From Coemansia sp. RSA 922 (taxonomy: Eukaryota > Kickxellomycota > Kickxellomycetes > Kickxellales > Kickxellaceae), in the NCBI GenBank assembly GCA_027577415.1, contig JANBQS010000009.1, forward strand, positions 16,815 to 80,814: DNA of 64,000 nt, read 5' to 3'. The notes beneath the pieces were generated by a model. That model worked only from the letters and a program-made list of their open reading frames with translations. It was not told the origin of the DNA and searched no databases. The position numbers and the translations under genes are program-made. Shown in pieces: positions 8,943-64,000 of the stretch. Numbering within the stretch: position 1 is the first letter of the stretch; the number at the start of each line of letters is the position of its first letter.

Positions 8943-10631
8943 TCAAAAGTATTCCACGCTGCGACGCACAAAATCCTGTAGACGTGGGGCATACGGCTTG
9001 AATATATTCAAAGCTACAGCGGCCTCTAGCTCTTCTCTGAATCCTTTAGCTTCGCCTCCAAGCATACCAATATAGGTATAATCGGGGTACGCCAGCGCCA
9101 ACAATAGCATACACGTAGCATTCTCTGCACGATAGAGGGGTGGCCCTGGCTGATAATTCCAGTATTGCAATTTTTTACCATCCGGAGCGTAAGTCGCCGT
9201 AATGTACGTGGGTAGATCATCCATATCGACATGATTTGGAATAGACCCAAAAATTGGAGGCAAGGTACGCAGAGTAGATAGAGCTGGTAATGCTCTAACC
9301 AAAGCAACAATATCCAGGAGCTCCAGGCGGAGGAAAGGCAATGTCAGAACTCGGATGGAGGCATAATTCAAAGTCGATAAGAGTGCTGGGACTAGCTCGG
9401 AACTAGAATGATCTCCCTCGACCTCTCGCACTGGTGTTCCTGGACAGATGCTAAGCATAAACTGCAAAGCATCAGCAGGCGTATCGAATTGACTTGGGTG
9501 TTCCTCTGGTGGATACTTGGTTACGACTCGCCGCAAATTTGGGTGACTGGTCGGCGTGAAAACGTTGTGGTCGAAAATAATGGAAACCAGCAGGTCGCTC
9601 ATAAACAACTCCAAGTGCTTAAGGGTACTGGAATTGCCCCTGAAAAGTACGTCGTCGCCAAACGGATAGCTGCTACGCAAGCAAATATGCTGAAGACGCG
9701 GAAACGGTACAACTCCCTTAATAGCTACTCGCTCTGGTGTATAGTCATCTGAGCCATCAAGCAAAACCAGGTCGCGTAAGTGTGGGTACGTGACGTAACT
9801 GCCATCTGGGCTTTGGATGAGGCCGGCTAGGTCAGCGGGAAAATTGGAAAGGAGACACAAGTGCTGCAATGTCAATGCATTCTGTCGCGCCAGCTCAATA
9901 GACGGACACGTGTAACCATCGACAAGAAACGTTAAATCGACCAGGTTGCGAATTATATATAGCTGCAGTCGTATGGGCATGTCTGCCCAAAACTGATGGA
10001 AGTACGAGACATGAGTGGATAGCTGAAAAAGCTGGGAAACCAAGGTGCCGATATAACAAGTGCCTTTGGCCTGGCTACAATGGGGAATATACGTCACTCC
10101 AATGTCGGTAGCTTTGGGCACCATCTGCCGGATCCGCTGAACAAACGCCGTGATGTTACTCTCAACAACAATAGCACTGGGCACACTATTTTCGTCAAGG
10201 ATATTAGAAGCAAAGTAGAGATTTACCACGCTGGCCATCGGAAATGCATAGTCATTGTAAGGCACAACTGACAGCCGTTTTAGTGACTCGCCCGTGTAAA
10301 CATCCCATTCGTTAGTGGTAAAAGTAAAGACAGAGGCCAAGTGATGGTGCACCGGAGAGCTATTACCCGGGCTATTTGCAAATGGGCGACGTTCTTCAAG
10401 TACACCAGGTCGAACACTAGTAAAGTCAATAGAAAACTCCGGACAGAAAAGTGGAAGGGCTATGACACGACAGTTGCTGCAGACCCACAACAGGGGCTTC
10501 AGCCTAGTCTTGCGCTGTTCTTCCCCAGTTATGGCTCCCTCAGAATCCGCACGAATACGACCCAAAACATAACTAATAATAAGCTGAATTACGTGGTGGG
10601 GAAGATACTGAAATATAGATATCGAAGACAT
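8943..10631 (-). CDS. F-box / leucine-rich repeat protein, 562 aa
   Basis: The start ATG at 10631 opens MSSISIFQYLPHHVIQLI, an F-box (LP..V...I..Y) at residues 7-45. The in-frame codons upstream look untranslated. The rest is a weakly conserved LRR-like solenoid with repeated LRDLVLL, LQHICLRS and LKHLEL segments. F-box proteins recruit substrates to SCF ubiquitin ligases through Skp1. The pattern DDVLFRGNSSTLKHLE also occurs in the 31158 product (NDILFRGNNQTLEHID), so they are paralogs. The target is unknown. Confidence 0.8.
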   Translation of the reverse strand: MSSISIFQYLPHHVIQLIISYVLGRIRADSEGAITGEEQRKTRLKPLLWVCSNCRVIALPLFCPEFSIDFTSVRPGVLEERRPFANSPGNSSPVHHHLASVFTFTTNEWDVYTGESLKRLSVVPYNDYAFPMASVVNLYFASNILDENSVPSAIVVESNITAFVQRIRQMVPKATDIGVTYIPHCSQAKGTCYIGTLVSQLFQLSTHVSYFHQFWADMPIRLQLYIIRNLVDLTFLVDGYTCPSIELARQNALTLQHLCLLSNFPADLAGLIQSPDGSYVTYPHLRDLVLLDGSDDYTPERVAIKGVVPFPRLQHICLRSSYPFGDDVLFRGNSSTLKHLELFMSDLLVSIIFDHNVFTPTSHPNLRRVVTKYPPEEHPSQFDTPADALQFMLSICPGTPVREVEGDHSSSELVPALLSTLNYASIRVLTLPFLRLELLDIVALVRALPALSTLRTLPPIFGSIPNHVDMDDLPTYITATYAPDGKKLQYWNYQPGPPLYRAENATCMLLLALAYPDYTYIGMLGGEAKGFREELEAAVALNIFKPYAPRLQDFVRRSVEYF

Positions 10632-11467
10632 TGCTAATATGTTAAAAATAAGGGAAATGAAAAAGTGAAGGAATGAAAGCCAAAGAATATAATGTCGCTT
10701 GATGACACCATGTATGTATTGCAGGGATCCGTGACACAGACAGCAATGCATCCTGTGCATGTTGCATGTGTCCGCAAATTTTGCCAATAGAGTCGGCCAA
10801 GAAAAATCGGCCAAGTGTTTGGCGTTTTTTCTTTGTGATATTGGATACTTCAACTACCAGCTATATTTGGATCTTCTTGATCTGGACAAATGTAGAGCCA
10901 AAAAACCGCAGTCTATACTCGTGAGTTTCCATTGTTGAGCATGTTACAGACCCGCATAATGGCGCTCAGTATTAGTCAAATAGCCCACATATGCCAGAGT
11001 AGGATTGTTTGTGAGTTTGGAAGTAGGCCAGGGAATAGCTCAATAGGCAATGCTTTGCTGTAGTGTTAACAAGGAAGGCGAGACTAGCAAGCTTTAGCTA
11101 TAGAGCTGGGGCTATGGAGAGTCGGATTTAGCCAAAAATGTCAGATATGCCAGAAAATTTATTATGGTCATTCAGACGAAAGCATGGATCGTCTGTCGCT
11201 TCTACAGTGGCAACGCACCTATACTTATTTGAGAGCTGTTTTAGAAGGACCCAATAAAGCCGGTGCACTTTGGCCAATACAAAAATCGGTTTATTCACGG
11301 GAGCTGACTTTTTAAGCTGTCATTCCTGATTGATTTATGACGCAAGCAGGTGTTGTGTGCTCCACAGCAAGGGAATACTGAAAGACAATAGAGCCAACAA
11401 CCCTTCTCTTTTTCTTATCCACCTATTTTTTATAATTTATTTTTGCATCTCTAAGACTATCTTGAAA
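10632..11467. other. Intergenic, no gene called
   Basis: Upstream region of the minus-strand F-box gene and leader of a possible small gene at 11468. Contains a short inverted repeat near 11173 (arms CAGACG / CGTCTG). No coding signal seen. Confidence 0.5.
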
Positions 11468-11809: not shown

Positions 11810-12480
11810 TGTATTTATTTATCATGTTGCGAGCTATTTAATGACACCTATTTTCTTCAAGTAAGGGATGCAGATGTTTATATGACTAAAAATGCTTTCT
11901 TTTACGCCGTATTTCTCTCCACATAAGTTACACGTGACTTCTTTTAAATCAGAGCTACTGTGCATGGCCAAAAATTATGTTGTTCCTTAGTGAATGTTGG
12001 AAAATAAATGAAAGTGGTGCCAACTTGTAGGACATACCCAACGTTTTATGAGAATACCTAAACTGACTATCGAGTCGTAACATTGCCTTGATGCAATACA
12101 AAAATAATTTTAGCTATAAATCTATCAGATAGATACGACGAGAGCATTTTATAAATGGGGATGTACATTTATAAGATGGCAATCGTTGAATGCATATTTG
12201 CAGGCCCTAATGAGAGGTATGAATATTACAAAGTCCCCTGATGTCTCGGATAGCTGTGATACCAATCACCTATGTTTGTAAGGGTTTGAAGGGGGTCTCA
12301 GTCAATGAGGATTGACATAAATGCCATCTTCAATTTTATTATCAAGAAAGAGCGTTTAAAGTCCGACTTTCTCATGCAAACATGCTTCGAAAAGTGGGCA
12401 TGTTGGACCTCTGTTTGAGGTGTCTCTAAAGGCTGGCAGCTATATGCCTGATTGATAATATTTGTACTGGTACCGGGCTA
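11810..12480. other. Intergenic, no gene called
   Basis: AT-rich spacer without coding signal. A small hairpin (GTCAAT-GAGG-ATTGAC) lies near 12300. Confidence 0.5.
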
Positions 12481-14091
12481 TTATCTGTGTACTGTCAGGT
12501 TAGCTAGATGAGGGTGTTTGTCCTTGAACATGTCGATAAATGTGAACATATGTTGATTGGCCAGTCTTGGTACAACCAATTCCTTGATGGCACCCGCATG
12601 CAGAATAAGAGCTTGGATGCCGCCGACACAATCCATTAAAGGACAGGACTTGTTGAAATTGCGCACAAAAAGGGTAGCCAGTCTCTCGCCCCATATCAGC
12701 ATCGGATCTGCACTAGTAAATAGCGGCAAGTCTACAGTAGAGTCGTGTGTAGCCATGTCCCTGAACTCCAGACGGTTTATGGTCAACTGACAAAGCTTTG
12801 GCAACTGACCTATTGCCCTGCAGATTGTAGTATAGCGTACCTTCCCAATGTCAAGTGTGGTGAGGTTGACCCATCGCATGAGCTCTGGATCCAGAATAAA
12901 CCAGTCAATGATGATGCGTAGAGACGCCGTTCGACCAATGCATATGTCAGTGAAAAGGTGGTTGGTAACTCTGTAGATGTCCGCAGTGTCGCCCAAGTCG
13001 GATGGAGTGATATTGACATCCAAGTGCCCAACGCAAGTAAGCTTCAGTCGACTGCAGTGGCAGATGCAGAAAATAGGCCCTGACAGATGCACCTTCTCTA
13101 GCTCGCGGAACGGGATATCGGTATACAAAAGGTCGCAGTCAGGAGTACAATTCGCAATGGACAGCTGCTTTAGCATGGGAAAGCTGAGCTTGTCGCAGTT
13201 GTGTGCCCCCAAGCCGGTCTTGTCCTCTATCTCCCCCTCTGTAAGCGCCTTACCCCTGCCCTCGAACCCAATGTGGAGAATGGTCAGTCGGTTGAAATAA
13301 ATAGGTCTGGTAAACTTTTCGTAGCAGAAGTGGTGCCAGGCGAAATTGTGCGGAACATCTTCTAGCCTCAACGCCACGAGAGTCTCGCTGCAGATACTTG
13401 GAAGTACACGAGTCGCCGAGGAGTCTAGGGTAAGATCCAGCACCCTCATTCTTCTTGAAAAGCAAGAAATGGGCAACGGAGTGGACCCTTGCGCTCTTAG
13501 AGCCTGCAGCTGATGACCGTAATACGTAACAAGCTGGGTGTATAGATATCTCCCCGTGGATCCACGCCTCAAATCATACCAATTCAAGTCGACGATATTA
13601 CGCAGGTTCTGAGCAAAGTACTGTACGGTACGCGCAATATCTGTGACAGCCCGTTTATCTTGAGAAACAGGCTCAACAAAGCGATTGAATGTCCAGAGGG
13701 AGCTGGTAAAAGTCAGCGAGTTGATGTGTTGCCAGTCCACGCGATCCAGGTTAAGTATATCCAGCACAATGCGCTGTAGGCAGGCAGGAGTAACCATTTC
13801 CTCCCACTCAATCGTTAGTCGTCTAGCCAACAGCATACACCCGCGTGAGATAAACAGGTCGGCATTGGAAGTCCATAAGAGGTGGGTGTCTAAATGATAG
13901 CGTAGCGCGGTAGCAAACTCGACGTACACATGGTTAAACACGGCGCCGACCACCAGCTTTGTCCATACTCGGCAAACGGCTAGTAGCGGTAGCTTGTACT
14001 TCCACTCATGTAGTCTGTAGGAGGGAGTAGCTGCTGCCTTGAACAATATCAGCTCTAGGACTTTGTAGGGAAGGTCGCTGATATGCCTCAT
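12481..14091 (-). CDS. F-box / leucine-rich repeat protein, 536 aa
   Basis: The ATG at 14091 opens MRHISDLPYKVLELILFKAA, an F-box. It is followed by LLAVCRVWTKLVVGAVFNHVYVEF, the helix set that usually closes an F-box. The remaining 480 residues hold irregular LRR-like repeats (MRVLDLTLD, LTILHIGFE, MLKQLSIANC, LEKVHLSG, LTTLDIGKV, LCQLTINRLE). It probably acts as a substrate adaptor of an SCF ubiquitin ligase. It is more diverged from the 8943 and 31158 proteins than those are from each other. Fanzor copy B sits about 360 bases upstream of its start. Confidence 0.82.
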   Translation of the reverse strand: MRHISDLPYKVLELILFKAAATPSYRLHEWKYKLPLLAVCRVWTKLVVGAVFNHVYVEFATALRYHLDTHLLWTSNADLFISRGCMLLARRLTIEWEEMVTPACLQRIVLDILNLDRVDWQHINSLTFTSSLWTFNRFVEPVSQDKRAVTDIARTVQYFAQNLRNIVDLNWYDLRRGSTGRYLYTQLVTYYGHQLQALRAQGSTPLPISCFSRRMRVLDLTLDSSATRVLPSICSETLVALRLEDVPHNFAWHHFCYEKFTRPIYFNRLTILHIGFEGRGKALTEGEIEDKTGLGAHNCDKLSFPMLKQLSIANCTPDCDLLYTDIPFRELEKVHLSGPIFCICHCSRLKLTCVGHLDVNITPSDLGDTADIYRVTNHLFTDICIGRTASLRIIIDWFILDPELMRWVNLTTLDIGKVRYTTICRAIGQLPKLCQLTINRLEFRDMATHDSTVDLPLFTSADPMLIWGERLATLFVRNFNKSCPLMDCVGGIQALILHAGAIKELVVPRLANQHMFTFIDMFKDKHPHLANLTVHR

Positions 14092-17515: not shown

Positions 17516-18319
17516 TTAAACAACTGAATCAGGTTCTTCAGAATTGTGGAATACTAGCAAGGAGCTTGGGAGAACACTCATTAGAAGCAACGGAACAAAG
17601 TTGAAAAAGTAAAACATTACTTCGCTGTCACGCGCTGGGTTGTCCAACGACAAAAACATTCTGCTGGTCATTAACGAGGCCCACACAAGCAATAGCGAAC
17701 TTCTTGCTAGCGTAGCTGCAATTTTAACCCAGTTTTTGAATATGCCTATCCGCGCTGAAGCCAAAGTAAAAATAATGGTAACCAATGAAAATGATATGAT
17801 AATAGCTATCACAAACTGTAATAGATATCTAGATGGGTCAACACCACGATATTCAGTTTTAAACATGATGATAACGGCTGGTATGACTATGACTAGCAAC
17901 ATGAGGTGGACAAACAAAAAGTATCTAGTAGACGCGTGCTTCTTGTTGAATCCAATTAGAAACTTTAGGCCTTTTCCCTTCAATGCAGCGTAAGGAACAA
18001 TGTTAAGCATGGAGAACCAAATGGCACAGGCGTAGTTGAAGTAAATCGAAGCTCTGTAAAAGGCTGTCGCATTGCTGTATTTGGGTTGTATCCAAGTACG
18101 CATAAACGCACTCAGCGTTAGAAGTACTAGGGCAAATCCATTGTATGAGGGACTCTCCTTTTCTCCACTCCTCACTCTTGATCCTAAGTACGAGAAAAGC
18201 ATCACGACACAAATTAGGCTAAATGCGGCTGCACCGCTTGGCAAATACGTTAGCCAATCAGAACTGCGAATACAGTCCTTGGACAGGCAAAAGCCTTCTC
18301 CCTGATATGAGACATCCAT
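17516..18319 (-). CDS. Seven-TM membrane protein, RTA1-like family (paralog 3)
   Basis: 267 aa from ATG 18319. Motif CLSKDCIRSSDWLTYLPSG at the N-terminus, about seven hydrophobic segments, FYRASIYFNYACA in the middle and MTSRMFLSLDNPARDSEVMF before the last segment, as in paralogs 1 and 2. Paralogs 2 and 3 point the same way with the short gene 17151 between them on the other strand, so local duplication with an interrupted spacer is likely. Substrate unknown. Confidence 0.75.
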   Translation of the reverse strand: MDVSYQGEGFCLSKDCIRSSDWLTYLPSGAAAFSLICVVMLFSYLGSRVRSGEKESPSYNGFALVLLTLSAFMRTWIQPKYSNATAFYRASIYFNYACAIWFSMLNIVPYAALKGKGLKFLIGFNKKHASTRYFLFVHLMLLVIVIPAVIIMFKTEYRGVDPSRYLLQFVIAIIISFSLVTIIFTLASARIGIFKNWVKIAATLARSSLLLVWASLMTSRMFLSLDNPARDSEVMFYFFNFVPLLLMSVLPSSLLVFHNSEEPDSVV

Positions 18320-48802: not shown

Positions 48803-49996
48803 TGTTTTTTTTATAAGTCGTTAAGGAGTTTTTTGTGTGTGTGTGGTATACTTGCGGTAGAATAATCCGATCAACAGAGTTCTACACAGCAGTAGTAAGG
48901 AGAAAATAAAGTTAAAAGGCGTAAAAAGGAGACAATTTGGAGTTTTGTACTGAACAAGGAGAGTGGGGGCGGCGGCAGCATCAATTCATTTTATAGTTCT
49001 AGTACAAAAATGTGAAAGCCGTTTTTTTGTTCCGTTCATACTGGCCACACTCAACAAGTTTTCATCTTGTAATTTAGGGTAGCAAGCGTTGGGGTGTTTT
49101 GTGCGCAATACCGTGTAGGGTAATTTTTTTTTCCCTGAGCCCCCTTTTTGCATAGTGCACCAAAAAAAATATCCTCCGCAATAAAATCAATGGCATGAAA
49201 AGAGGAGGGATGGACCGCTTATATTTTTACTTATAAGAGATTCTGGATCATGTTCACCCAAATGCCTCGGCCCTATTTCTCTCAGCCCTCCCCCCTCTTG
49301 ACTTTGTTGGAACCAATGAATTTTTAAGCATAGAGGGTGGCGAAAAGAGGGCTGAGAGGGAAGGAGGGGGCACTAAATCGAGATTTTCTCAGTCATCCAC
49401 GGCCCATGTGAAGCTAGCGAATCAGTGGGCCGACTCACAGTTAGACAAATGGTGTGCTTTCAGAGCACCAAATATTTATTCAGTTACTGAGGAGATTTAC
49501 ACTCGGACCTTTTTTTTCTTCTCTGATCACGATGTTGGGCTTTGTGTTCATCCTCTCCGCTATTTTTTTATTCCCATTGGTCTTGTCCAATCACAATACG
49601 ATCTTTGCCCAAATCCCGCACTCAACATGGGCTGGAAATTGCGGACCGAGCCCATTCGGTCCCACGTGTGAGTCGGTTCATTTCAGTCCGCTCCGACGTC
49701 TGACAGAGCCGCCAGTAATTAATCAATAGTGATTAAATTGTCGCATGCGGAATAACAGACTCGGAATGGCATCATGTGAGACTACGCATATGGGTAACAC
49801 CATTCGGCAATTGAAACAGCAAGAGACGATATGCATGCAGCACGCTGCTCTGTCTGCCTGCATGGGATGACAGCCCGTCTTTTTTATAAACCCCTTTTTA
49901 TGGTAATTTCCTTCACGATTGCTATTGCGCTCATCCTTCCTTTATTTCTTTTGTGCTTTGCCTTTTTAAGGTACTTGAGAGCGTGTCTCTCGGCAG
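48803..49996. other. Long intergenic stretch with CCAAT and inverted-repeat motifs
   Basis: Upstream of the zinc-finger array. It contains ATTGGTCTTGTCCAAT (inverted CCAAT boxes, near 49577-49592) and a 7-base palindrome with 6-base spacer at 49643-49662. No coding signal was seen. Confidence 0.5.
49643..49662. promoter_or_regulatory. Inverted repeat GGACCGA-N6-TCGGTCC
   Basis: Perfect 7-base arms with CGG-type half sites, as bound by dimeric zinc-cluster regulators. It lies about 450 bases 5' of the first zinc-finger microprotein gene. Function inferred only. Confidence 0.4.
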
Positions 49997-50005
49997 TATA
50001 AATAG
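49997..50005 (+). promoter_or_regulatory. TATA box of zinc-finger gene 1
   Basis: TATAAATAG, 119 bases before ATG 50116. Confidence 0.55.
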
Positions 50006-50115
50006 ACTATAGATTCCCGCCTACCTGAACCACGAACGTGTCATCTTATTCTTTTCTTTTACACCTCGCACACTAACTATATAAATATTCTGTATTCTTT
50101 TTTTTTTTCAAACCT

Positions 50116-50313
50116 ATGTGGCCACCCGAACGACCGCTGACAAAGTCAGCCTACATACACCCAGACTACTATCTCGTGGGGTTTCCCGCTGGCACGACAG
50201 ACAATAAGCTTTGTAAATGCTTTTGGTGCAGGCACACGTTTGCAAACTTCAACGTCTACTCTATTCATGCTCGCGTGTGTTCCCAGCGCCCGTTTGTGTA
50301 TCCGCCGTATTAG
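50116..50313 (+). CDS. C2HC zinc-finger microprotein 1 (65 aa)
   Basis: One finger, CFWC-x12-H-ARV-C, in the middle of 65 residues. The N-terminus is Pro-rich (MWPPERPLTKSAYIHPDYY) and the tail is Arg/Pro/Tyr (SQRPFVYPPY). There is a TATA box 119 bases upstream and a T9 tract just before the start. It is the first of six genes on this strand with the same C-x2-C-x12-H-x3-C spacing. No signal peptide. A single classical-type finger may bind a protein or short DNA; the role is unknown. Confidence 0.7.
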   Translation: MWPPERPLTKSAYIHPDYYLVGFPAGTTDNKLCKCFWCRHTFANFNVYSIHARVCSQRPFVYPPY

Positions 50314-50479
50314 AAGACTCGGTACGCTTATTTTTGTATTTTGACGAGTAAGCGATCAGCCCTAGAGTAAAATAACATGGAGCAGCTCGATCCGCATTCA
50401 CGATAAGACTTTATGGATTGTACAGTATCTGTCACCATTTGTCTACATTGTACTATGTCACCCACACGGCATTCATTAG

Positions 50480-50711
50480 GGTGGCTATGTTTCCAAAGTT
50501 AGAAGCGGATACGTCCTTTACACTAATAGACAAAGAAAAATATCCATCAATTGTCTCACATGCAATGATTCGCATTGTACATAATGCTGTAATCGCCTAT
50601 ATAATTTTATGTCAGAGCAACATTCAACAAATGCCCTGGTCTTCGGCATATAAAATAACTAGCCCTCTCCTACAACACAATGTAACAACCATACACTTAC
50701 TCGAAAAGTGA
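50480..50711 (+). pseudogene. Decayed fragment, copy of the 55570-55880 sequence
   Basis: About 150 bases (50545-50690) align with the complement of 55690-55840. The translated parts are MIRIVHNAVIAYIILCQSNI and (other copy) FHIVHNAVIAYRDLCQRNV, then QMPWSSAYKI / QLPWSLAYKV. The LPWSLAYKVSDILL part would fit an F-box helix, so both may be remnants of F-box genes. No start or complete frame is present. Confidence 0.5.
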
Positions 50712-51252
50712 ATATTATTGCTCTCTCGTGCCAGCTCGACACAATACACTATATAGCTCTACATTATACGCCATAGTCTTGGCAATGCCTTTCTAGACTA
50801 TTGTATTTACATGTAGAAAATATATTCAATGTCGTCAAGCATTCAATAGTTCTATTAACAATGGCAGGTTAGCATTAGGAAGCTTGCACTATTTGGAGCA
50901 ATGTAAGTAGCAGCCCCATGATATTGTCAATTGCTAGACGGACGCAGCTGACCGGCGGAGTTACACTATAGTACAAGTTTGTTACATGTCACTGACGTCG
51001 TCACCGCCACTGTCAAGTTACAAGCAGGAAATATTTTTGCCATGTAATTACAGAAATAAACCATTTCCCTATTGAGCACTACAAGGAATTCAAGATCATT
51101 CGCTGCATTCCACCTGTGGTGTTGCATTACACAATTAAAATACTTTCAATGGCGCTGAATTAGACACTCAAGGGCTCTTACTACGTCAAGTCGATGCGAA
51201 GTTCGCGACAGACTGGCCAGAAAGGCTGTGTAGCTCTTTAAAGCCCAAAGGG

Positions 51253-51260
51253 TTTATAAC
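51253..51260 (+). promoter_or_regulatory. TATA-like box of zinc-finger gene 2
   Basis: TTTATAAC, about 105 bases before ATG 51360. Confidence 0.4.
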
Positions 51261-51359
51261 CTATTTGCTCTCACCACGCGTTCAAAGGCAACAACCATCT
51301 ATTAATTTCATGTACTCTCACTATTCTATTCTTCTAAACTTTCGGAGCTAGGATCAAAT

Positions 51360-51518
51360 ATGAGCTTTATACATCGAGACCCTGAATCGCTCTACAGGGA
51401 TATATTTTGCTATTTCTGCTACCAGGACTTTAATGGCTCTGTAGACTTTGAGGTCCATGCTGAAAAGTGCCACCCACCACCGACCGGTTTAGACATGATA
51501 CGTGAGGGTTCACCATGA
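51360..51518 (+). CDS. C2HC zinc-finger microprotein 2 (52 aa)
   Basis: Read directly: MSFIHRDPESLYRDIF, then CYFC-x12-H-AEK-C, then HPPPTGLDMIREGSP and TGA at 51516-51518. The finger has the same spacing as its neighbours. The ORF is short enough to escape a 60-codon cut-off. It has its own TATA-like element. The closest in tail style to gene 6 (both follow the last Cys with Pro). Confidence 0.7.
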   Translation: MSFIHRDPESLYRDIFCYFCYQDFNGSVDFEVHAEKCHPPPTGLDMIREGSP

Positions 51519-51716
51519 CAGCTAGTAGACTACAGACAGCGTACACCACTTTTTACTTACATGATAGCCAGTTATTGGCTTTCTAAATATAGTATTCGAT
51601 ACTCCAGCTAATGTTCCACATTATCGATCAGACAGATACTTAGAGCGGTATCATTACTCCCAACCATCAGACTCAAGATTATATTTGCCTTTGAAACAGC
51701 CAGGATTGCTGACGGT

Positions 51717-51723
51717 TATAAAA
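51717..51723 (+). promoter_or_regulatory. TATA box of zinc-finger gene 3
   Basis: TATAAAA, 121 bases before ATG 51838. Confidence 0.55.
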
Positions 51724-51837
51724 CAAAGTCATGCGGCAGGGGATGTGGCCAACATCTCTCTTTACCATTATCTACACAAATTTTTATCCAACGGCACTGA
51801 ACCCAAGCCAGTCCGACATTGTTAACTAGTATATAAG

Positions 51838-51975
51838 ATGCTATATTTTTGTCGATACTGCTCGTCTATCACTTTTACCTCAGAGGCCTTTTACTTACAC
51901 TCGTGTGTTTGTGTCAAAATTGCTCATGAGGGGGGCGTAAAGATCCATCCACTTGACGAAGTGTTCCTAAGGTAA
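51838..51975 (+). CDS. C2HC zinc-finger microprotein 3 (45 aa)
   Basis: The finger begins almost at the N-terminus: MLYF, then CRYC-x12-H-SCV-C. A 22-residue tail follows (VKIAHEGGVKIHPLDEVFLR) with TAA at 51973-51975. An extra Cys sits inside the H-x3-C loop. With genes 4 and 5 it forms a compact sub-type that lacks an N-terminal extension and has an acidic or basic tail. Confidence 0.7.
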   Translation: MLYFCRYCSSITFTSEAFYLHSCVCVKIAHEGGVKIHPLDEVFLR

Positions 51976-52127
51976 CTGCCAGAGTAGGTCGGCTTTGACT
52001 TGCATCAGCTGAGAAGCGCTAGCTGATTATCAATTAGATAGATAAATATAGTTCTAGTTTCACCGGCAAAGTACGTATCAGAGAGGCCTGCTTGCCTGCT
52101 TGCTTTTTCGACCCTTTTGACGGCTGA

Positions 52128-52134
52128 TATAAAA
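52128..52134 (+). promoter_or_regulatory. TATA box of zinc-finger gene 4
   Basis: TATAAAA, 133 bases before ATG 52261. Confidence 0.55.
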
Positions 52135-52260
52135 GGAGATCAATACAGCAATTTTTGTTGTTGCTTAGCTCACTGCTATTATAAACACCTTTTGCTCTAG
52201 CTATCTATACACCTCATATTTTGCACCTCTTTATATCAACGTTGATTTAATTGCTAAAGT

Positions 52261-52401
52261 ATGGCCATGTTCTATTGCAAGTACTGCGAGCTAGTGTATT
52301 TTGATCGTCAAGGTTTGCATAATCACAAGTACTTGTGTGTGGCTTTTGCCTACGCAGACGACAAAGAAATAGATGAAGACGACTTGATCTATTTGTTCTA
52401 G
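52261..52401 (+). CDS. C2HC zinc-finger microprotein 4 (46 aa)
   Basis: MAMFY, then CKYC-x12-H-KYL-C, then VAFAYADDKEIDEDDLIYLF and TAG at 52399-52401. The tail is strongly acidic. A second in-frame ATG (52267) would remove two residues only. Same finger spacing as its neighbours, independent TATA box 133 bases upstream. Confidence 0.7.
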   Translation: MAMFYCKYCELVYFDRQGLHNHKYLCVAFAYADDKEIDEDDLIYLF

Positions 52402-52596
52402 CAACCTAGCCCACATACCTTAGTATCTGCCAATACTTTATACAACTGGCCTAGCCCAATATCTATCAGCGCTATATATCTATCAATACGCTTATTTATC
52501 TGACAAAAGTACATAATAAATCACTCTAGTATGCAAGGCAAACTATCTAAAATAAAGTTGATTTTTCCGCCCTGAAACATGACGCACCAATTACGT

Positions 52597-52603
52597 TATA
52601 AAG
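52597..52603 (+). promoter_or_regulatory. TATA box of zinc-finger gene 5
   Basis: TATAAAG, 135 bases before ATG 52732. Confidence 0.5.
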
Positions 52604-52731
52604 ACGAGCACATCCCCTGGACTTGATTTTCATGATGTTACCATTTCTCTCCTTTTCTGCTGTCTCCAAGACTACATGCCACATACATAGCTGTTACTGA
52701 ATCCAAGTCATCTCGCAGTCTCCTTTTTACA

Positions 52732-52881
52732 ATGAGACACATTTGCCAAATCTGTTACGAGAATTTTCATTGTGAGAACGTCTATTTAGCCCATATGGTT
52801 GTATGTGCCTTAGTTGCCATTATACGTGGTATAGACCTAAACGAAAACGAACAAAGGCCCGTGCAACGTCGAAGAAAATGA
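52732..52881 (+). CDS. C2HC zinc-finger microprotein 5 (49 aa)
   Basis: MRHI, then CQIC-x12-H-MVV-C, then ALVAIIRGIDLNENEQ and a basic end PVQRRRK, stop TGA at 52879-52881. The basic end could serve as a nuclear signal. The spacing and position of the finger match genes 3 and 4. Confidence 0.7.
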   Translation: MRHICQICYENFHCENVYLAHMVVCALVAIIRGIDLNENEQRPVQRRRK

Positions 52882-53526
52882 GTCAATATAGCTGTCCATC
52901 GCTTGAAGAATAATGATGCCAGTACATGCCATTTGCCGGATGTGGTGATTTTCCTCCATTTGAAAAATAATTATAATACATCCACAAATCTAAAAAAATT
53001 AGTTTACAATGTCAATGGATTTTTTGTTATTTTACAAGTTTTGCAGATTCTGTATGATGGCGACAACATGGCACAGACCTACAACAAGCGGAGGAGCGCC
53101 TTTAGTTCCACTTTAACGTTTTTACAAATCAAGCCAATATTGTTGAGCTGCGCTATTGTAATAGTGTTAATATGTGAGTGCCGCTACTTTCATAGTAATT
53201 CCCTTTTGAAAACTTTCAGGGCCCCACTTTCCCACGTCATGGATAAGGCAAGCTAACCAGATGATCTGGAGCTTCAAAGTAGCAAGCACGCCTGGTCAGC
53301 CTTGAAGTTTTCCGCACAAATAAGATTCAATTACAGTTCATTGGCTCCAACACTATTGTAATAATATATATCTATCTAACCTGTATGTATTATACATTAT
53401 CAGGGTCTCACTTACGCATGTGATATCTGAAACAAAAAACCAGCTAAAAAACAATATCACGTTCAGCGATAGCTATCGCCTCTTACAAAGCTAATCGCGC
53501 CTAGCCTTTCTCCAGCCTTCCGCGAC

Positions 53527-53533
53527 TATAAGA
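53527..53533 (+). promoter_or_regulatory. TATA-like box of zinc-finger gene 6
   Basis: TATAAGA, 74 bases before ATG 53601, closer than for the other five. Confidence 0.4.
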
Positions 53534-53600
53534 ACAATGGAGTATTACTACAACAAATATTAACGTAAGTATAATATCCCAATTCAATTGTTACCAGAAA

Positions 53601-53801
53601 ATGCCCCCTCCTCTTCGTACAAAACCAGGAACAGATTGCCTCAGGACTCCCACTGTCTTTGGCTGCCACTACTGCCTTACTATGCACACAAATATCAACC
53701 TTATGATTGCGCACAAGGAGAAGTGCATTCCCGAGGCCAAAAAGAATGGCTGGAAGATCGCTTCTGAGGATGAAAAGTACTTGAAAGATGGTGACATATA
53801 G
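53601..53801 (+). CDS. C2HC zinc-finger microprotein 6 (66 aa)
   Basis: MPPPLRTKPGTDCLRTPTVFG, then CHYC-x12-H-KEK-C, then IPEAKKNGWKIASEDEKYLK and a TAG stop at 53799-53801. It has a Pro-rich N-terminal extension like gene 1. Last member of the array. The first Cys of the N-terminus (residue 13) is not part of the finger spacing. Confidence 0.7.
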   Translation: MPPPLRTKPGTDCLRTPTVFGCHYCLTMHTNINLMIAHKEKCIPEAKKNGWKIASEDEKYLKDGDI

Positions 53802-54604
53802 TTGTGAGTTCCGCATTGGTTGGAGCGCAGCATAACTGATACCACTAATTTAATAAAATTCATGAATTGAATACATTTTAAAATGCACATGCTGAGCACC
53901 ATACTGCTTTTGTAGTCACCAAAAGCTTGTGTGCTATACCACCAAGCAAAATCTATAGCTAGAAGGTACAGCTGACACTTGCAGTAAGGTTTTTAAAACC
54001 GTTCCTTTTATCTTATGTGCGAGCAACTAGTAGCCTAATATTTTGATGGCATTGACATATTGTCTTCAGGCGCTTACAGCATCCTTTCTACTATAACACT
54101 TGAGCCGCTTGCATCTCCCTCTCGGGTATGCAGATCACGCTATATTCTAGCTAGCTCCATGATTAGCTTTTGTAAGTTTAACCAGTCCATTCGAAACGGC
54201 TACCAGGCTTAGTAGTACGCACATTGCCTTTCTCCTCAAACAAAGCCCGGGCTGATCAATGTTCTCTGAATTCACAAGTAGCAGTAAACATCAATTCACT
54301 CTTGTTTTATTTAAAGTGCTGCGACGACAAGAAATACCAACTGGACTCGAGACAGTGATTCTGGTGCAATGACGTTCAATGGGTTGCTTCAATGTATTCT
54401 TGAAAAGGGCATCAAAATTAAACACGAGTCAATTGATCAGTGCAGCCCGGCAACAAAAAAAAGCAGTGATTTCGACTGTTTGCTAAACAATGAAAGCTGG
54501 CTGCGGTGGTTGGCAAAGATCGGTGCAAATAAAAAAAAAAACAAAGCAACGTCAAAAGCGCCAATCTCTTTCACGATTTAGGGCAAATAAAAAAGGGCAA
54601 AAAA
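53802..54604. other. Intergenic, 5S downstream flank
   Basis: AT-rich. A 70-codon Lys-rich ORF from 54369 (MTFNGLLQCILEKGIKIKHE..) has no recognisable finger or domain and may be chance. Confidence 0.45.
54599..54604 (-). terminator. RNA polymerase III terminator of the 5S gene
   Basis: Run of six T on the minus strand directly after the 5S 3' end. Confidence 0.8.
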
Positions 54605-54723
54605 GCTGGGACACTCGGTATTCCCATATGGTCACCCACTATAGTACTAACCGAGCTGTAACCTACTTGTCTTCGGAGATCGGGACGGGATCCGGAACTT
54701 ATACAGGTTCATATGGCCCCAGC
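54605..54723 (-). rRNA. 5S ribosomal RNA
   Basis: 119 bases on the minus strand. The 5' end GCTGGGGCCAT pairs with the 3' end GTCCCAGC as helix I. The internal landmarks CCCGTCCCGATCTCCGAAG, GGTTAGTACT and GGGTGACCAT.TGGGAATACC match 5S rRNA. The 3' end is followed by T6, the RNA polymerase III terminator. A single copy in a gene-poor patch; dispersed 5S genes are common in fungi. Some positions in the A-box region (GAAGACAAG instead of GAAGTTAAG) differ from the common form. Confidence 0.92.
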
Positions 54724-55008
54724 TGAAATTAGAGCGTTATTAATGCGTAGTAATAGGAATGGTTTGTCTTGTTTTTGGACAATATCACGTGCGGAGTATG
54801 TGGAGTATTTCTGGGGATATGGGGATATCGTTTGGCTCTAGCGATAGCCAAAAGTAGGTGATTGTTTCAGCTGTTTAGTCTCAAAAGATCTAGGCAAAGT
54901 TGCGAAAAAGATCATTGGCCGATGAAAGTTAGCTAAAGGGAGAAGGTGCATGAACAGATGACCAGAGCCTTTTCATAAAGTGCGATTAAAGCAGACTGGT
55001 ACCATCCG

Positions 55009-55057
55009 AGTCTAGTAATTATTACTAGACTTGGCGAGCCGCGTTATAAGCACGCGG
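55009..55057. repeat. Two adjacent hairpins
   Basis: First: arms AGTCTAGTAAT / ATTACTAGACT (11 bases, perfect) around one base. Second: arms CCGCGT / ACGCGG with a 7-base loop. They stand 7 bases apart. Confidence 0.6.
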
Positions 55058-55209
55058 CGGGTCACAATCCAGATCCTGCTAGCTAATCCGCAGTAACACT
55101 TGTTATCCAACGCACGCTAGGCTGTGGGTGAAGAAGATTATGATTTATTACTCTGTTATTCAATCAACTCCTTTGCTTAAGGTACGTGCTATTCCCGCTT
55201 GCAAGAGCG

Positions 55210-55239
55210 CCGCCCAGTATCAATCGATACAACGGGCGG
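55210..55239. repeat. Compound hairpin
   Basis: Outer arms CCGCCC / GGGCGG and inner arms GTATC / GATAC with a 4-base loop, both perfect. Confidence 0.6.
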
Positions 55240-55569
55240 GACCACACTAACAAAAGTGGCTGGGCGCGAGGAAATGCACGCATGTTACGCGCGTCGTAGA
55301 ACAGCGCGCCGGCCCACGTGATCAGTCCAATGGTCTACACAATGACGACACACTCTTGCCGGATGTCCCGGACTTCCAATGCCCAAATGTCCCACCGCCG
55401 ATATATGATCGCCCGCCTACAAAGAGGCACAACTCAGCAACACTAAGGGTAGCGGGAAAGGCGTATTTCTGTCTATGGAAACGGGCCATGAAAAAGGCTA
55501 TATAAACATTAACCCGTCAGCATCCAGAGGTAGATTATTGTTCTCACTTTTATATACGCTCATATTTAT

Positions 55570-55880
55570 TATATTCTATATTCTATACGCTATTAGCTTG
55601 CTACGCTCACAAAGTAACAATAGCACACTTGAAAAGGGAGCTTTGTATAGAAAAAGTGTGGTCAAAGACAAAGATATGTTTGGTGAATGTGTCGTAGAGT
55701 TGTAGGAGAATATCAGATACTTTATATGCCAGAGACCAGGGAAGTTGTTGAACGTTTCTCTGACATAAATCTCTATAGGCGATAACAGCATTATGTACAA
55801 TGTGAAACATTACATGTGAGACAATTGACAGATAAAGTTCTCTGACTATTGGCGTGAATGGATGTATTTGCTTATAACGT
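55570..55880 (-). pseudogene. Decayed fragment, copy of the 50480-50711 sequence
   Basis: On the minus strand it reads FHIVHNAVIAYRDLCQRNV, QLPWSLAYKVSDILLQLYD and then a frame with TKHIFVFDHTF. It is more complete than the 50480 copy and in opposite orientation. Possible F-box-like motif LPWSLAYKVSDILL. Confidence 0.5.
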
Positions 55881-56177: not shown

Positions 56178-58715
56178 ATGTCGATGGAGCCGCCTCCGTT
56201 CAACGAAGAGTTGAGCAAATACCCGCCACAACCCAAGGACAGCGGACAAAAAGCCGATACCCAAGTACAGACCAACTACAGTCGCGTAGAGCTTTCAACG
56301 AAGCACTTGTACGTATACCAGGTATCGATCGTCAACTTGGATGCCCACAGCAGTACACGGGGCCAAGGCGGAGACCAGCAAGCAACCGATCCCCTAGTTC
56401 GTAGCGAGGTATTTGACAAAGCATTGTCTAATTCGGTACTATCCAAAAAGTACGTTTACTTTGACGGCAAAGATTACGCGTACTCGCCCAAATCTCTACA
56501 CAAACACTGGTCTGAGCCGCCGACTGACGAGTTGAAGATTGTGTTTGCGCATTCGTCAGTTTTACTCGAGTTTCCATGCCAGTTTGAGGTGAAAGTCCGG
56601 GCGTTGCGTAAATACGATACCAAAGAGCTACTGAGGTATTGTAATGGCGATACTAGCGTTCCAGACTCTTATATCCAAGGGTTTATGTACGCTATTGATG
56701 CTATTGTTAGGAGCTGCCCCAAGCCGCAGTTCGAGGACCTGGGTGGCCGGTATCTCAGTAATCACAGGCCTGTGGTTACTCCGTGGGGGTACGATATTTG
56801 GTGGGAGTATCGGCTGACTATGCGACCAGGTCAAGGCTCGTTATTCGTGAATATCGGCGCGAAATCTGTACCGGTCATCAACGTGACTACGAATTTGGCT
56901 GAGCTGAGCCGGCTATTTTTCGAAAAGAAAGTCGCAATGCTTCAACGCAAAAACAAGTGCGGTTTGGAGTTCAAGGATTGGGCGAGTTTCGAACCCGTAG
57001 TACGCGGTCTCCAAGTTGTGGAGGATGAGTCACTGGTCGGTTTATCGGGATTGTCAACTATGAGTGCGGCGCAAATGACTGTTGACGGCGAATCACTGGC
57101 ATTGTATTATCGTCGTAAATTTGGTCAAGATATTGGCGACCCTTCGATACCCTGCGCAATAACTGTAGATAAGCGACCTATTCCTTTATCGCTCTGCTTG
57201 CTACCAGCCGGTAAGCGGCAGATACAAGCTGTGGTTGGAGCTTGGCAGCGTGATGAATTTTTCAAATCCAGCGCAGTACCACCCGAACACCGACAATCCG
57301 TACTTTCTCATGGTATGCGGCTCTTGGCGCAGGAGAGTAAGGATTTAAAGGCGTTTGGCATTAAGATCACTCCCACACTGGAAACTGTCAGTGCCAGGGT
57401 GTTCGACCCGCCACGCGTTATTTTGCGTAGGCACACAGCCAAGACTACGGCAGAGATGCACGAGGGTCGTTGGGAGATGGCTGGAAAGCGGGTCGTCGAG
57501 TCATCGCAGTTGCGGTCCTGGTCTGTGCTTGTATTCGGACACCAAATGGGGATGCCACCAGCCCTATTGCGCACGTTTATCAACCAGTATGTCAAGATCT
57601 GCGTAGAGCTGGGTATCGACATTCAGCAAACGTCGCCGCCGGTCAAATACGCTACAGCGTGGAACGATATCGAAAAGGTGATGACTGAGGCCAAGCAACT
57701 GTCCGAGTCTCATGGCGATCGGTCGCAACTGGTGCTTTGCATTCTGCCGTTCAACTCGGTGTCCTTGTACGGCGAGATCAAGCGGGTGGCTATGACAGTC
57801 GTCGGCGTGCAGACGCAGTGCGTGCAGTCTAGCAATGTTCGGTCGCATAACCCCAAATTGCTGACTTCTATTGCGCTCAAGATGAACGTCAAATTAGGCG
57901 GATTCACTGCCGACCTCCACACAGACGATTTGCCGGGATTGAGCCAAATACCGACCATGATCTTATCAGCGGACGTCAATCACACGACAGAGGCCGGTGG
58001 GATGTCAGTCGCTGCGATACTCTCGTCAACTGACGCCCAGGCGCGTAGATTTGCTGGCACTGTATTGCAGCACCCGCAGCGTATGGAGTATATCGAGAAC
58101 TTTGACACGATTATCCGACAGTCTCTACGCCTCTTCCATCAGTCCACAGGGGGACTTAAGCCACAGCGTATTATCTACTATAGGGACGGCGTTAATGATG
58201 CGCAGATGCAGGCGGTTAAGCAAATAGAACTGGCGGCTATTTACCGCGGCTGCCAGCTCATCGACCCAGAGTACCGGCCACTTGTTACTTTGGTGTTGAT
58301 CCGTAAAAGACACCACGCTAGGTTCCTTTTGGATAGAGGTAACTGCGAGCCTGGGACTTGTGTCTCGGGGGGCGTGGTCAGTCCAGCGGTGTTTAGCTTC
58401 TATTTGCTCGCGCATCGGTCGCCATTCGGGGTGTCAAAACCAGCGTACTATTTGGTTCTTCACGATGATTGTAGGTTCGATGCGGAGGAACTCAAAAGAC
58501 TGACGTATAACCTGAGCTACATGTATCCGATAGTCACGCGTTCGGTTACTATGCCAGCATCATTATACTACGCACATAGGCTGACTGGAAAGGGGCGGTT
58601 GCAGTTGAGTCGGGCATTCAACACACTACCTTATTTTACTAAAACGCCTGACAAGGAGCTGCCATTTTTGGTTCCTGTGCATGAGGCACTTCGAGATACT
58701 ATGTATTTCATGTGA
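56178..58715 (+). CDS. Argonaute protein, 845 aa, intronless
   Basis: From ATG 56178 the product has N, PAZ, MID and PIWI domains in order. The PIWI domain shows the DEDH tetrad: Asp599 in SADVNHTT, Glu637 in RMEYIENF, Asp670 in YYRDGVNDAQM and His800 in YYAHRL. It therefore looks cleavage-competent for small-RNA-guided silencing. The usual GT.VD segment before FYL reads GTCVSGGVVSPAVFSFYL, and HYHVLWDD reads YYLVLHDD, so it is a diverged member. It converges with MDM1, with 11 bases between stop codons. Start is the first ATG of the frame. Confidence 0.93.
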   Translation: MSMEPPPFNEELSKYPPQPKDSGQKADTQVQTNYSRVELSTKHLYVYQVSIVNLDAHSSTRGQGGDQQATDPLVRSEVFDKALSNSVLSKKYVYFDGKDYAYSPKSLHKHWSEPPTDELKIVFAHSSVLLEFPCQFEVKVRALRKYDTKELLRYCNGDTSVPDSYIQGFMYAIDAIVRSCPKPQFEDLGGRYLSNHRPVVTPWGYDIWWEYRLTMRPGQGSLFVNIGAKSVPVINVTTNLAELSRLFFEKKVAMLQRKNKCGLEFKDWASFEPVVRGLQVVEDESLVGLSGLSTMSAAQMTVDGESLALYYRRKFGQDIGDPSIPCAITVDKRPIPLSLCLLPAGKRQIQAVVGAWQRDEFFKSSAVPPEHRQSVLSHGMRLLAQESKDLKAFGIKITPTLETVSARVFDPPRVILRRHTAKTTAEMHEGRWEMAGKRVVESSQLRSWSVLVFGHQMGMPPALLRTFINQYVKICVELGIDIQQTSPPVKYATAWNDIEKVMTEAKQLSESHGDRSQLVLCILPFNSVSLYGEIKRVAMTVVGVQTQCVQSSNVRSHNPKLLTSIALKMNVKLGGFTADLHTDDLPGLSQIPTMILSADVNHTTEAGGMSVAAILSSTDAQARRFAGTVLQHPQRMEYIENFDTIIRQSLRLFHQSTGGLKPQRIIYYRDGVNDAQMQAVKQIELAAIYRGCQLIDPEYRPLVTLVLIRKRHHARFLLDRGNCEPGTCVSGGVVSPAVFSFYLLAHRSPFGVSKPAYYLVLHDDCRFDAEELKRLTYNLSYMYPIVTRSVTMPASLYYAHRLTGKGRLQLSRAFNTLPYFTKTPDKELPFLVPVHEALRDTMYFM

Positions 58716-62915: not shown

Positions 62916-64000
62916 CTAGCCATGACGAGGATGCTTGGACAATGGCTGCGCATCAGAAGCCAAGTCACTCCTACGAGCAGAATGCAACGTCATCAAAAAA
63001 GTACGCTCAGGCGCCACAGTATCCGCCACAGCCACAGCCACAGCCACAGCCACAGCAGCCCTAGCAGCACCGCGGCCTCTGGCAGCCGTAGACGTAGGTG
63101 TAGACGTAGGCATAGCAGCAACCACATGAGTAGGGCGCTTAAACACTGGAGGAATGTCACCCTTTCTAATAAAGTGCTGGATGATGTGGCGAAAGTTCAG
63201 AGTGGCAGCCAGGTTGCGATTATACAGGCGAGGCTTGTAGACGACATTACGTTCATCATCGAGCTGCTTAACGAGACAGTTTGAACACTGAAGCAGGCCG
63301 TGACAGAGCGTAAGACGCCTTTGCCAACGCCGATAAGGCCGGGGGTTGTCAATTACCTTGCACTTGTGGAGGTTGCCATCACATCTGGGACAGGTCTTGG
63401 ACGTATGGAACTCGTCAAACAGATACATTGGAAAGCCGAATTTCTTAAACTTTTTGTGCCAGCCATGACCCCGAATAGGTGCATGAAAGCGAGCCATTGA
63501 TGCAGACCAATTGCCACAGACCATGATCAGTCGCTTGCCAAACTTTTGGATCATGTTGCACTTCAAACGCGCATCTGCTTGCTGCTGGTTGATGTACGCG
63601 GAAAGTTGCAGCTTGCGGTGGAATGGATAGTTGCAGGGCTCGTGGTCATTGTCAGAGTGGACTTGGTGTGTGGATTCAGTGTGGGTGGTCATTGTATTCG
63701 AGTAAAAGTCGCTGAGAACATCCCAGACCATTGCGCGAGCAGCAATGTATTCAAGGAACTCCTCCAGATCAAGCGTAGTACAGTTAAAGTTGGACAAATA
63801 GAGCTTGGCCTCGCGAATGGCAATGGAATTACTGTGCTCGTTCTTGATGATTTCGCACAACTGAGTGAACTTTCGCATGTGCATCTCATCTAGGCATTGC
63901 TTGCGAGAGTAGCGAAGTACACACGGATTCAAATCAGTGCTCGCCCAGCCCAACATATAGTTCAGATCGCCACGGCCCATGTCGTTGAAGACGAGATGCT
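62916..64000 (-). CDS. Fanzor, TnpB-like RNA-guided nuclease family (5' end outside window)
   Basis: The frame is open to the window edge. The first RuvC motif reads FNDMGRGDLNYML; its Asp is the codon 63981-63983. The second part has MVCGNWSASMARF and then LFDEFHTSKTC, whose Glu (63411-63413) is the alternative catalytic residue of Fanzors. A zinc finger follows (CPRC, then CHGLLQCSNC). The third motif is LYNRNLAATLNF: the expected Asp of NRD is Asn (63213-63215), as in copy B. The C-terminus is a Val-Ala repeat and a basic tail. If Asp is needed there, the protein would be catalytically weak or dead yet could still bind RNA and DNA. It lies about 330 bases from the MDM1 start and 4.2 kb from Argonaute. 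Confidence 0.88.
   Translation of the reverse strand, partial: HLVFNDMGRGDLNYMLGWASTDLNPCVLRYSRKQCLDEMHMRKFTQLCEIIKNEHSNSIAIREAKLYLSNFNCTTLDLEEFLEYIAARAMVWDVLSDFYSNTMTTHTESTHQVHSDNDHEPCNYPFHRKLQLSAYINQQQADARLKCNMIQKFGKRLIMVCGNWSASMARFHAPIRGHGWHKKFKKFGFPMYLFDEFHTSKTCPRCDGNLHKCKVIDNPRPYRRWQRRLTLCHGLLQCSNCLVKQLDDERNVVYKPRLYNRNLAATLNFRHIIQHFIRKGDIPPVFKRPTHVVAAMPTSTPTSTAARGRGAARAAVAVAVAVAVADTVAPERTFLMTLHSARRSDLASDAQPLSKHPRHG

What the first reader, a model, noticed from the sequence alone, without database searches (positions are those of the whole stretch)
50116..53801. Tandem array of six single-zinc-finger microprotein genes
Six plus-strand ORFs (45-66 aa) at 50116, 51360, 51838, 52261, 52732 and 53601 each encode one finger with identical spacing C-x2-C-x12-H-x3-C, while the rest of the proteins differ completely. 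Each has its own TATA-like box, in five cases 105-135 bases before the ATG. Four are too short for a 60-codon cut-off and would be missed by routine annotation. The spacing is that of classical C2H2 fingers with the last His changed to Cys. Fixed finger plus free tails suggests a family whose finger sets the fold and whose tails set the partner, for instance small competitors of larger zinc-finger proteins or effectors. The function is open.
Basis: partly seen in the sequence, partly recalled or inferred. Interest (0 to 1): 0.9.

Follow-up and report, generated by a model that had tools for sequence, protein, structure and literature searches.

The report
Hidden family of one-finger microproteins
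Six tiny neighbouring genes in a Coemansia fungus, each encoding one predicted zinc finger, belong to a larger family of small proteins that selection maintains and for which no annotated relative was found; what they bind is not yet known.

Summary
The six ORFs are real. Each has one C-x2-C-x12-H-x3-C finger at the stated place; 300 shuffles gave none. They are not confined to the array. A seventh lies at 11834-11965 (-), and searches of the same genome, a Coemansia by its CDC45, bring the total to 20 independent loci plus 12 second copies on other contigs. Eleven pairs of diverged copies show purifying selection: dN/dS 0.36, Fisher p 9e-6. In nine pairs the ORFs have 0 gaps in 1428 bases, the flanks 11-13 per 1.3 kb. 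Two of 31 full copies have lost a zinc ligand. Of the array itself, only gene 1 had a second copy to test.

The tails do not "differ completely": 12 of 20 members, three of them in the array, share A-x3-G-x2-I-x3-D-x2-[YF]-[LIF]. Four of six array genes have their best match elsewhere, so a recent tandem expansion is unlikely. DNA-contact positions carry K or R in 1 of 80 cases. I favour intracellular protein-binding modules, partner unknown. Links to F-box/LRR-like neighbours and GATA-like motifs are leads only. No relative was found among predicted proteins. Expression and zinc binding are untested.

The parts
50116..50313 (+). finger gene 1 (65 aa), long N-terminal tail; nearest by anchored score to type B; linked to the family by motif and place only
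   Evidence: first 41 codons also on contig C200 with 2 synonymous and 0 nonsynonymous changes; its own genome search found only itself and C200
51360..51518 (+). finger gene 2 (52 aa), type B (DPE..CYFC..F.GS..F..HA..CH); nearest kin on contigs C66, C626/C836 and C323/C957
51838..51975 (+). finger gene 3 (45 aa), type A, tail motif 6 of 6
   Evidence: hit by gene 4 at E 0.024
52261..52401 (+). finger gene 4 (46 aa), type A, tail motif 5 of 6
52732..52881 (+). finger gene 5 (49 aa), tail motif 2 of 6, basic end; linked to the family by motif and place, not by a tblastn hit
   Evidence: not used as a query
53601..53801 (+). finger gene 6 (66 aa), type A, tail motif 6 of 6; nearest kin C83/C220
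   Evidence: AlphaFold2 model mean pLDDT 74
11834..11965 (-). seventh finger gene in the window (43 aa), short tail, between two F-box/LRR-like genes; 93% identical second copy on contig C115; linked to the family by motif
49997..50003 (+). TATA box of gene 1 (TATAAAT, -119)
51253..51260 (+). TATA-like box of gene 2 (TTTATAAC)
51717..51723 (+). TATA box of gene 3 (-121)
52128..52135 (+). TATA box of gene 4 (TATAAAAG, -133)
52597..52603 (+). TATA box of gene 5 (-135)
53527..53532 (+). TATA box of gene 6 (TATAAG, -74)
12481..14091 (-). F-box/LRR-like gene next to the seventh finger gene; its relative L067:3884-5521 likewise lies next to a finger gene
   Evidence: no Pfam match itself, F-box match of the relative below cut-off
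8943..10760 (-). second F-box/LRR-like gene on the other side of the seventh finger gene
   Evidence: no F-box or LRR match in Pfam, kinship by tblastn to the others

Best explanation
A multigene family of intracellular microproteins (41-71 aa in the 20 independent members), each one classical beta-beta-alpha finger with Cys in the fourth ligand place. In 12 of 20 members the finger is followed by a conserved tail (A-x3-G-x2-I-x3-D-x2-[YF]-[LIF]), modelled as a prolonged finger helix plus a short second helix. Each gene is intronless as read. Shown: the ORFs, the motif, the family, purifying selection on the pairs that could be compared, statistical promoter and start-context signals. Predicted: the fold. 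Inferred: zinc binding, and that finger plus tail is a protein-docking module rather than a DNA reader, different copies having different partners; this rests on one finger per protein, almost no basic residues at the DNA-contact positions, mixed net charge and the conserved tail. The family evolves by duplication, dispersal and loss of copies.
For: Motif and shuffles. 20 independent loci in the own genome. dN/dS 0.31 in 9 pairs (bootstrap 0.22-0.42) with 0 gaps in 1428 ORF bases; 0.36 in 11 pairs. Ligand changes 2 against 11.3 expected at the synonymous rate. Shared tail. A at -3 of the ATG in 16 of 20 against 322 of 998 nearby ATGs, and TATAWR at -150..-55 in 14 of 20 against 233 of 992. AlphaFold2 models: mean pLDDT 85 for a C83 member and 74 for gene 6: strands, long helix, short second helix. 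K or R at helix positions -1, 2, 3, 6 in 1 of 80. Net charge -5 to +7, median +1.
Against: No transcript, peptide or zinc-binding data. The partner is unknown. A finger without basic contacts could still bind RNA or DNA by another face, and C83c (+7), C829a, C83a and gene 1 (+4 each) are basic. None of the 20 reaches a Pfam cut-off. Genes 1, 5 and the seventh are tied to the rest by motif, not by a tblastn hit to another locus. AlphaFold may fold finger-like sequences confidently whatever their truth (a caution of this kind for AlphaFold 3 stands in the abstract of PMC12383448, whose start was seen in a listing). Two of 31 full copies have lost a ligand (C14; C220c), so some copies are dispensable. 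Ligand changes are not rarer than the family's own nonsynonymous rate predicts (2 against 4.05, P 0.23).
Confidence: 0.5

Rival explanations
1. Small nucleic-acid binders: each single finger, helped by its tail or by dimerisation, binds DNA or RNA and regulates genes.
For: The solved structures that the profile matches best are C2H2 zinc-finger proteins, many of them DNA binders (best 60 of 202 seen); single-finger DNA binders such as SUPERMAN exist (function recalled; its structure 1njq is among the weak fold matches). A small zinc-finger regulator is known in an archaeon (Brz, PMC2253796, start of abstract seen in a listing).
Against: K or R at canonical contact positions in 1 of 80; one finger per protein; several members acidic.
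Confidence: 0.17
2. microProteins in the strict sense: they compete with a larger finger protein for its partner.
For: Size and single-domain form; plant microProteins act so (PMC4807768, start of abstract seen in a listing).
Against: No larger relative found: 11 protein searches of the own genome gave matches in open frames of at most 137 codons. The search is weak for divergent fingers.
Confidence: 0.12
3. Partners or regulators of F-box/LRR-like proteins (ubiquitin ligase adaptors), with which they are linked in the genome.
For: 8 of 12 finger loci outside the window have an F-box/LRR-like gene within about 1.5 kb against 3 of 23 control tiles, Fisher p 0.002; with queries from the window alone 6 of 12 against 3 of 23, p 0.04. 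The seventh window copy lies between two.
Against: None near the six-gene array (0 of 6), nor at C90, C83c, C495, C66. Controls are few: 15 tiles of the window and 8 overlapping tiles of four other stretches. Several loci share a contig, and the query set came partly from these loci. F-box matches are below Pfam's cut-off in 2 of 8 proteins and absent in the other 6.
Confidence: 0.12
4. Fast-turnover genes of genetic conflict or non-self recognition, variable between haplotypes.
For: The contigs of the second copy, C200 and C534, stop at 50240 and resume at 55649, and no second copy of genes 2-6 was found (genes 2, 4, 6 also by protein). C29 carries two tandem copies where C486 shows one.
Against: dN/dS well below 1. 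The gap may be an assembly collapse or break.
Confidence: 0.08
5. Chance ORFs or relics of a decayed multi-finger gene.
For: Short ORFs in AT-rich intergenic DNA; two copies elsewhere have lost a ligand; five of the six array genes could not be tested for selection.
Against: Shuffles, purifying selection and absence of indels in family pairs, promoter-like signals, same one-finger form at all dispersed loci seen.
Confidence: 0.02

Closest known systems
Classical C2H2 zinc fingers (Pfam zf-C2H2, zf-C2H2_4, zf-C2H2_6)
   Same: C-x2-C-x12-H spacing, core positions, predicted beta-beta-alpha fold; the profile aligns to them over the finger
   Different: fourth ligand Cys, one finger alone, C-terminal tail motif in 12 of 20; none of 20 members reaches a Pfam cut-off
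C2HC variant fingers that bind proteins (Friend of GATA; plant BIRD/IDD fingers, e.g. 5b3h JACKDAW with SHR-SCR)
   Same: Cys in the fourth place; protein binding is known for these (recalled; 5b3h seen only as a listed weak fold match; BIRD-IDD Pfam match of C83c at E 0.06)
   Different: those are parts of large multi-finger proteins (recalled); FOG spacing H-x4-C is recalled, here H-x3-C
Ubiquitin-binding UBZ2/UBZ4 fingers (FAAP20, RAD18, WRNIP1)
   Same: C2HC ligands, beta-beta-alpha fold, and in FAAP20 a functional C-terminal tail (PMC4267625, passages read)
   Different: the DxHxAxCL motif of UBZ2 is in 0 of 20 members; UBZ4 features were not tested
One-domain zinc-finger micro-proteins of Haloferax and Brz of Halobacterium
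   Same: many predicted stand-alone zinc-finger proteins under 70 aa in one genome (PMC6562870, PMC11241148, PMC2253796; starts of abstracts seen in a listing)
   Different: archaeal and, in Haloferax, with C(P)XCG motifs; no sequence link tested
Plant microProteins (miP1a/b) and mini zinc fingers (MIF)
   Same: single-domain small proteins (PMC4807768, PMC13087070; starts of abstracts seen in listings)
   Different: those are sequence-related to larger proteins; no such parent found here

Membership tests
C2H2-superfamily zinc finger | two Cys, then His and a fourth ligand at classical spacing | tested here: met
   6 of 6 array ORFs; 19 of 20 independent members, C323 has H-x5-C
C2H2-superfamily zinc finger | hydrophobic core (aromatic 4th after second Cys, aliphatic/aromatic 3 before His) | tested here: met
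   F/Y in 15 of 20; F/L/Y/I/M in 19 of 20
C2H2-superfamily zinc finger | reaches a curated Pfam score | tested here: not met
   0 of 20 independent members (C957 standing for the identical C323); best 19.7 bits against a cut-off of 25, zf-C2H2_6 for C90
C2H2-superfamily zinc finger | beta-beta-alpha fold | tested here: inconclusive
C2H2-superfamily zinc finger | binds zinc | not testable with these tools
   needs purified protein
DNA-binding C2H2 transcription factor | tandem fingers with basic contact residues at -1, 2, 3, 6 | tested here: not met
   one finger per ORF; K/R in 1 of 80 positions, against 6 of 36 in nine fingers printed (a small yardstick)
UBZ2 ubiquitin-binding finger | DxHxAxCL motif | tested here: not met
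   motif from PMC4267625; 0 of 20
UBZ4 ubiquitin-binding finger | ubiquitin-contact residues of RAD18/WRNIP1 type | not tested
   only the C2HC ligand type is shared; RAD18 5vf0 is a listed weak fold match
FOG-type GATA-binding C2HC finger | GATA-contact surface and H-x4-C spacing (recalled) | tested here: inconclusive
   spacing is H-x3-C here; surface not compared
strict microProtein | sequence relative of a larger multi-domain protein of the same organism | tested here: inconclusive
   none in 11 protein searches of the own genome, sensitivity limited
secreted effector | N-terminal signal peptide | tested here: inconclusive
   simple hydropathy with the start codons I chose shows no signal-like stretch ahead of the finger; C829a read from an earlier ATG would begin with a hydrophobic stretch; no predictor was run

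The most novel reading that the evidence does not exclude
A lineage-specific, haplotype-variable family of single-finger adaptor proteins that coevolves with the F-box/LRR-like genes beside many of its loci, finger plus tail acting as a tiny docking piece that steers or blocks a ubiquitin ligase.
Probability: 0.1. Interest if true: 0.8.

Novelty: new variant of a known kind. Interest (0 to 1): 0.52.

Why it matters
It is a family of about 20 loci of at most 71 codons in the independent members, maintained by selection in an early-diverging fungus. Predicted proteins of its relatives are in the collection searched (many Coemansia CDC45 proteins), yet no relative of the family turned up there. 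It shows how small-protein coding capacity can escape routine annotation, and gives a compact natural set for asking what a lone C2HC finger does.

Tried and rejected
Homologues elsewhere: profile searches of 5.8 billion predicted proteins with type A (17 sequences) and type B (7 sequences) found none at E <= 1 among 22 and 56 candidates. Only proteins of about the query's length that share 5-residue words are candidates there, so relatives hidden in longer models would be missed. A scan of viral contigs with one C83 member found none. The DNA of other Coemansia genomes could not be searched.

Six exons of one spliced multi-finger gene: rejected, because each ORF has its own ATG, stop and TATA-like box and the same one-finger form recurs at isolated loci. 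Upstream ORFs of F-box genes: rejected as a general explanation, because finger genes lie both upstream and downstream of them. A recent tandem expansion of the whole array: unlikely, though the anchored scores of genes 1 and 5 are low. A repeat as carrier: the only repeat that the DNA search of 50000-54000 showed is about 180 bp at 50498-50676, outside the genes.

GATAGATA, in 8 of 20 upstream 400-base stretches against 0 of 24 control genes, was picked from all 8-mers after the fact and is a lead only. A palindrome TATCNGATA was in 2 of 20. A hand-made TATA pattern (12 of 20) missed gene 1 and was replaced by the plain TATAWR count; a narrower range (-150 to -80) gave 9 of 20 against 22% of random positions inside the array region.

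Literature: nine searches, of which only the best 8-20 papers each were listed, showed no paper describing this family; only PMC4267625 was opened (passages).
Full report
WHAT IS THERE. Each has exactly one C-x2-C-x12-H-x3-C. Scanning the ATG-to-stop ORFs of both strands gave seven matches in 64 kb, the six plus one at 11834-11965 on the minus strand, and none (ORFs of 30-100 aa) in 300 dinucleotide shuffles of 49900-53900 or 20 of the whole window. No array member reaches a Pfam cut-off, nor do the other 14 independent members.

A GENOME-WIDE FAMILY. The window is contig C9:16815-80814 of a 20.4-Mb assembly in 960 contigs. Its CDC45 is 93% identical to that of Coemansia aciculifera and 91% to Coemansia sp. 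S146, so by this one protein the organism is a Coemansia (order Kickxellales, recalled). tblastn in this genome with array members and then with new members (11 protein searches; E up to 10, most new loci below 0.01 with at least one query) gave, with the seven in the window, 20 independent loci of 41-71 aa and 12 second copies on other contigs (C486, C85, three on C220, C19, C14, C115, C626, C836, C957, and C200, which is cut at codon 41). Counts are lower bounds by the tool's own statement. Gene 1 and the seventh gene found only themselves and their second copies, and gene 5 was neither a query nor a hit; these three are tied to the rest by motif (gene 5 also by 2 of 6 tail positions). Genes 3 and 5 were not used as queries. 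The longest open frame at a match was 137 codons, so no large protein with this finger was seen.

SHARED TAIL, TWO TYPES. By column over all members that reach it: A 12 of 19, G 14 of 19, I 12 of 18, D 11 of 17, Y or F 11 of 14. Gene 2 belongs with C66 and C323 to a type B, DPE...C[YF][WF]C...F-x-GS..F..H; gene 1 and C83c are nearest to that type. By anchored score, 4 of the 6 array genes (1, 2, 4, 6) have their best match outside the array, genes 3 and 5 inside it. Local duplication does occur: contig C29 has two tandem copies where its counterpart C486 shows one.

SELECTION. Many loci exist as two copies on different contigs, about 4-11% apart in their main aligned stretches, either haplotypes of a heterozygous assembly or recent duplicates. 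Nine full pairs gave 31 synonymous changes in 313 sites and 36 nonsynonymous in 1115: dN/dS 0.31, bootstrap over pairs 0.22-0.42, Fisher p 6e-6. The ORFs have 67 differences in 1428 aligned bases and no gap; 150 bases upstream have 108 in 1336 and 11 gap events, the next 150 upstream 190 in 1340 and 11, 150 bases downstream 181 in 1295 and 13 (some flanks contain rearranged stretches, so their substitution counts are rough). Adding gene 1 against C200 (2 synonymous, 0 nonsynonymous in 41 codons) and the poorest pair, C83c/C220c (5 and 15), gives 0.36, p 9e-6. Against the reading: C14 has lost the fourth Cys to Arg, C220c the first Cys to Phe, and C220b and C626 have longer C-termini than their partners. 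Two ligand changes in 42 compared ligand codons are fewer than the 11.3 expected at the synonymous rate (P 0.0009) but not fewer than the family's own nonsynonymous rate gives (4.05, P 0.23). Of the array itself only gene 1, in part, could be tested.

PROMOTERS AND STARTS. TATAWR lies at -150 to -55 in 14 of 20 independent members against 233 of 992 other ATGs within 700 bases (p 1e-5), and A stands at -3 in 16 of 20 against 322 of 998 (p 2e-5). The ranges were set after the array's boxes had been seen, and for C829a and C323 an inner ATG was taken. GATAGATA occurs in 8 of 20 upstream stretches and 0 of 24 control genes, a post-hoc lead.

FOLD AND MECHANISM. AlphaFold2 with 17 members folds the C83 member (mean pLDDT 85, pTM 0.58) as a short hairpin, a helix 19-35 and a second helix 42-47. 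Gene 6 gives the same plan with a low-confidence N-tail (mean pLDDT 74). Sequence profile and fold comparison point to C2H2 fingers; the fold scores are weak. Helix positions that read DNA in classical fingers (recalled) carry K or R in 1 of 80 cases, N and D being commonest, and net charge runs from -5 to +7. With the chosen starts no signal-like N-terminus is seen. I infer an intracellular protein-binding module whose helix is extended by the shared tail. That step is inference, not shown.

NEIGHBOURS. Outside the window, 8 of 12 finger loci have an F-box/LRR-like gene within about 1.5 kb against 3 of 23 control tiles (p 0.002); with the three window genes as only queries it is 6 of 12 against 3 of 23 (p 0.04). 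The seventh window copy sits between two such genes. None is near the six-gene array. F-box matches are below Pfam's cut-off (2 of 8 proteins; one more has a sub-cut-off LRR match). The link is suggestive only.

THE ARRAY ON THE OTHER COPY. Contig C200 matches the window up to 50240 (96% over 1.75 kb) with its first base; contig C534 matches from 55649 on (93% over 1.7 kb), again with its first base. No second copy of genes 2, 4 or 6 was found by protein, and the DNA of 50000-54000 showed none beyond 50240 apart from a short repeat. Either the second copy is missing or very different, or the assembly broke there.

NOVELTY. No relative was found among predicted proteins at E <= 1, although many Coemansia proteins are in that collection. 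Nine literature searches listed no description of such a family. The finger is of a known kind; the stand-alone family with this tail is a new variant.

Noticed in passing
window 14567-15325 (-) and 62916-63980 (-): Two related ORFs with a weak Cas12f1-like_TNB match (E 7e-4 and 1e-4, below cut-off), perhaps TnpB/Fanzor-type pieces of eukaryotic elements.
   Followed up: no
window 56178-58715 (+): An Argonaute-like gene (Piwi E 8e-72, Mid, N-terminal and a sub-cut-off L2 match; no PAZ match listed) lies 2.4 kb downstream of the array.
   Followed up: no
window 50240-55649: Contigs of the second copy (C200, C534) stop and resume at the two edges of the finger array: possible haplotype difference or assembly break.
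   Followed up: partly
window 50498-50676 and 55699-55878: An inverted pair of repeats of about 180 bp, 81% identical; one lies in the gap between genes 1 and 2, the other beyond the array.
   Followed up: no
window 4287-5387, 15633-16463, 17516-18319 (all -): Three membrane-like proteins with a shared CI-x3-DWLT stretch (by eye); no Pfam match for the two tested, the first and the third.
   Followed up: no
L004:1489-2174 (contig C29) against L003 (contig C486): Two tandem finger genes on one copy, one on the other: copy-number difference inside the family.
   Followed up: partly
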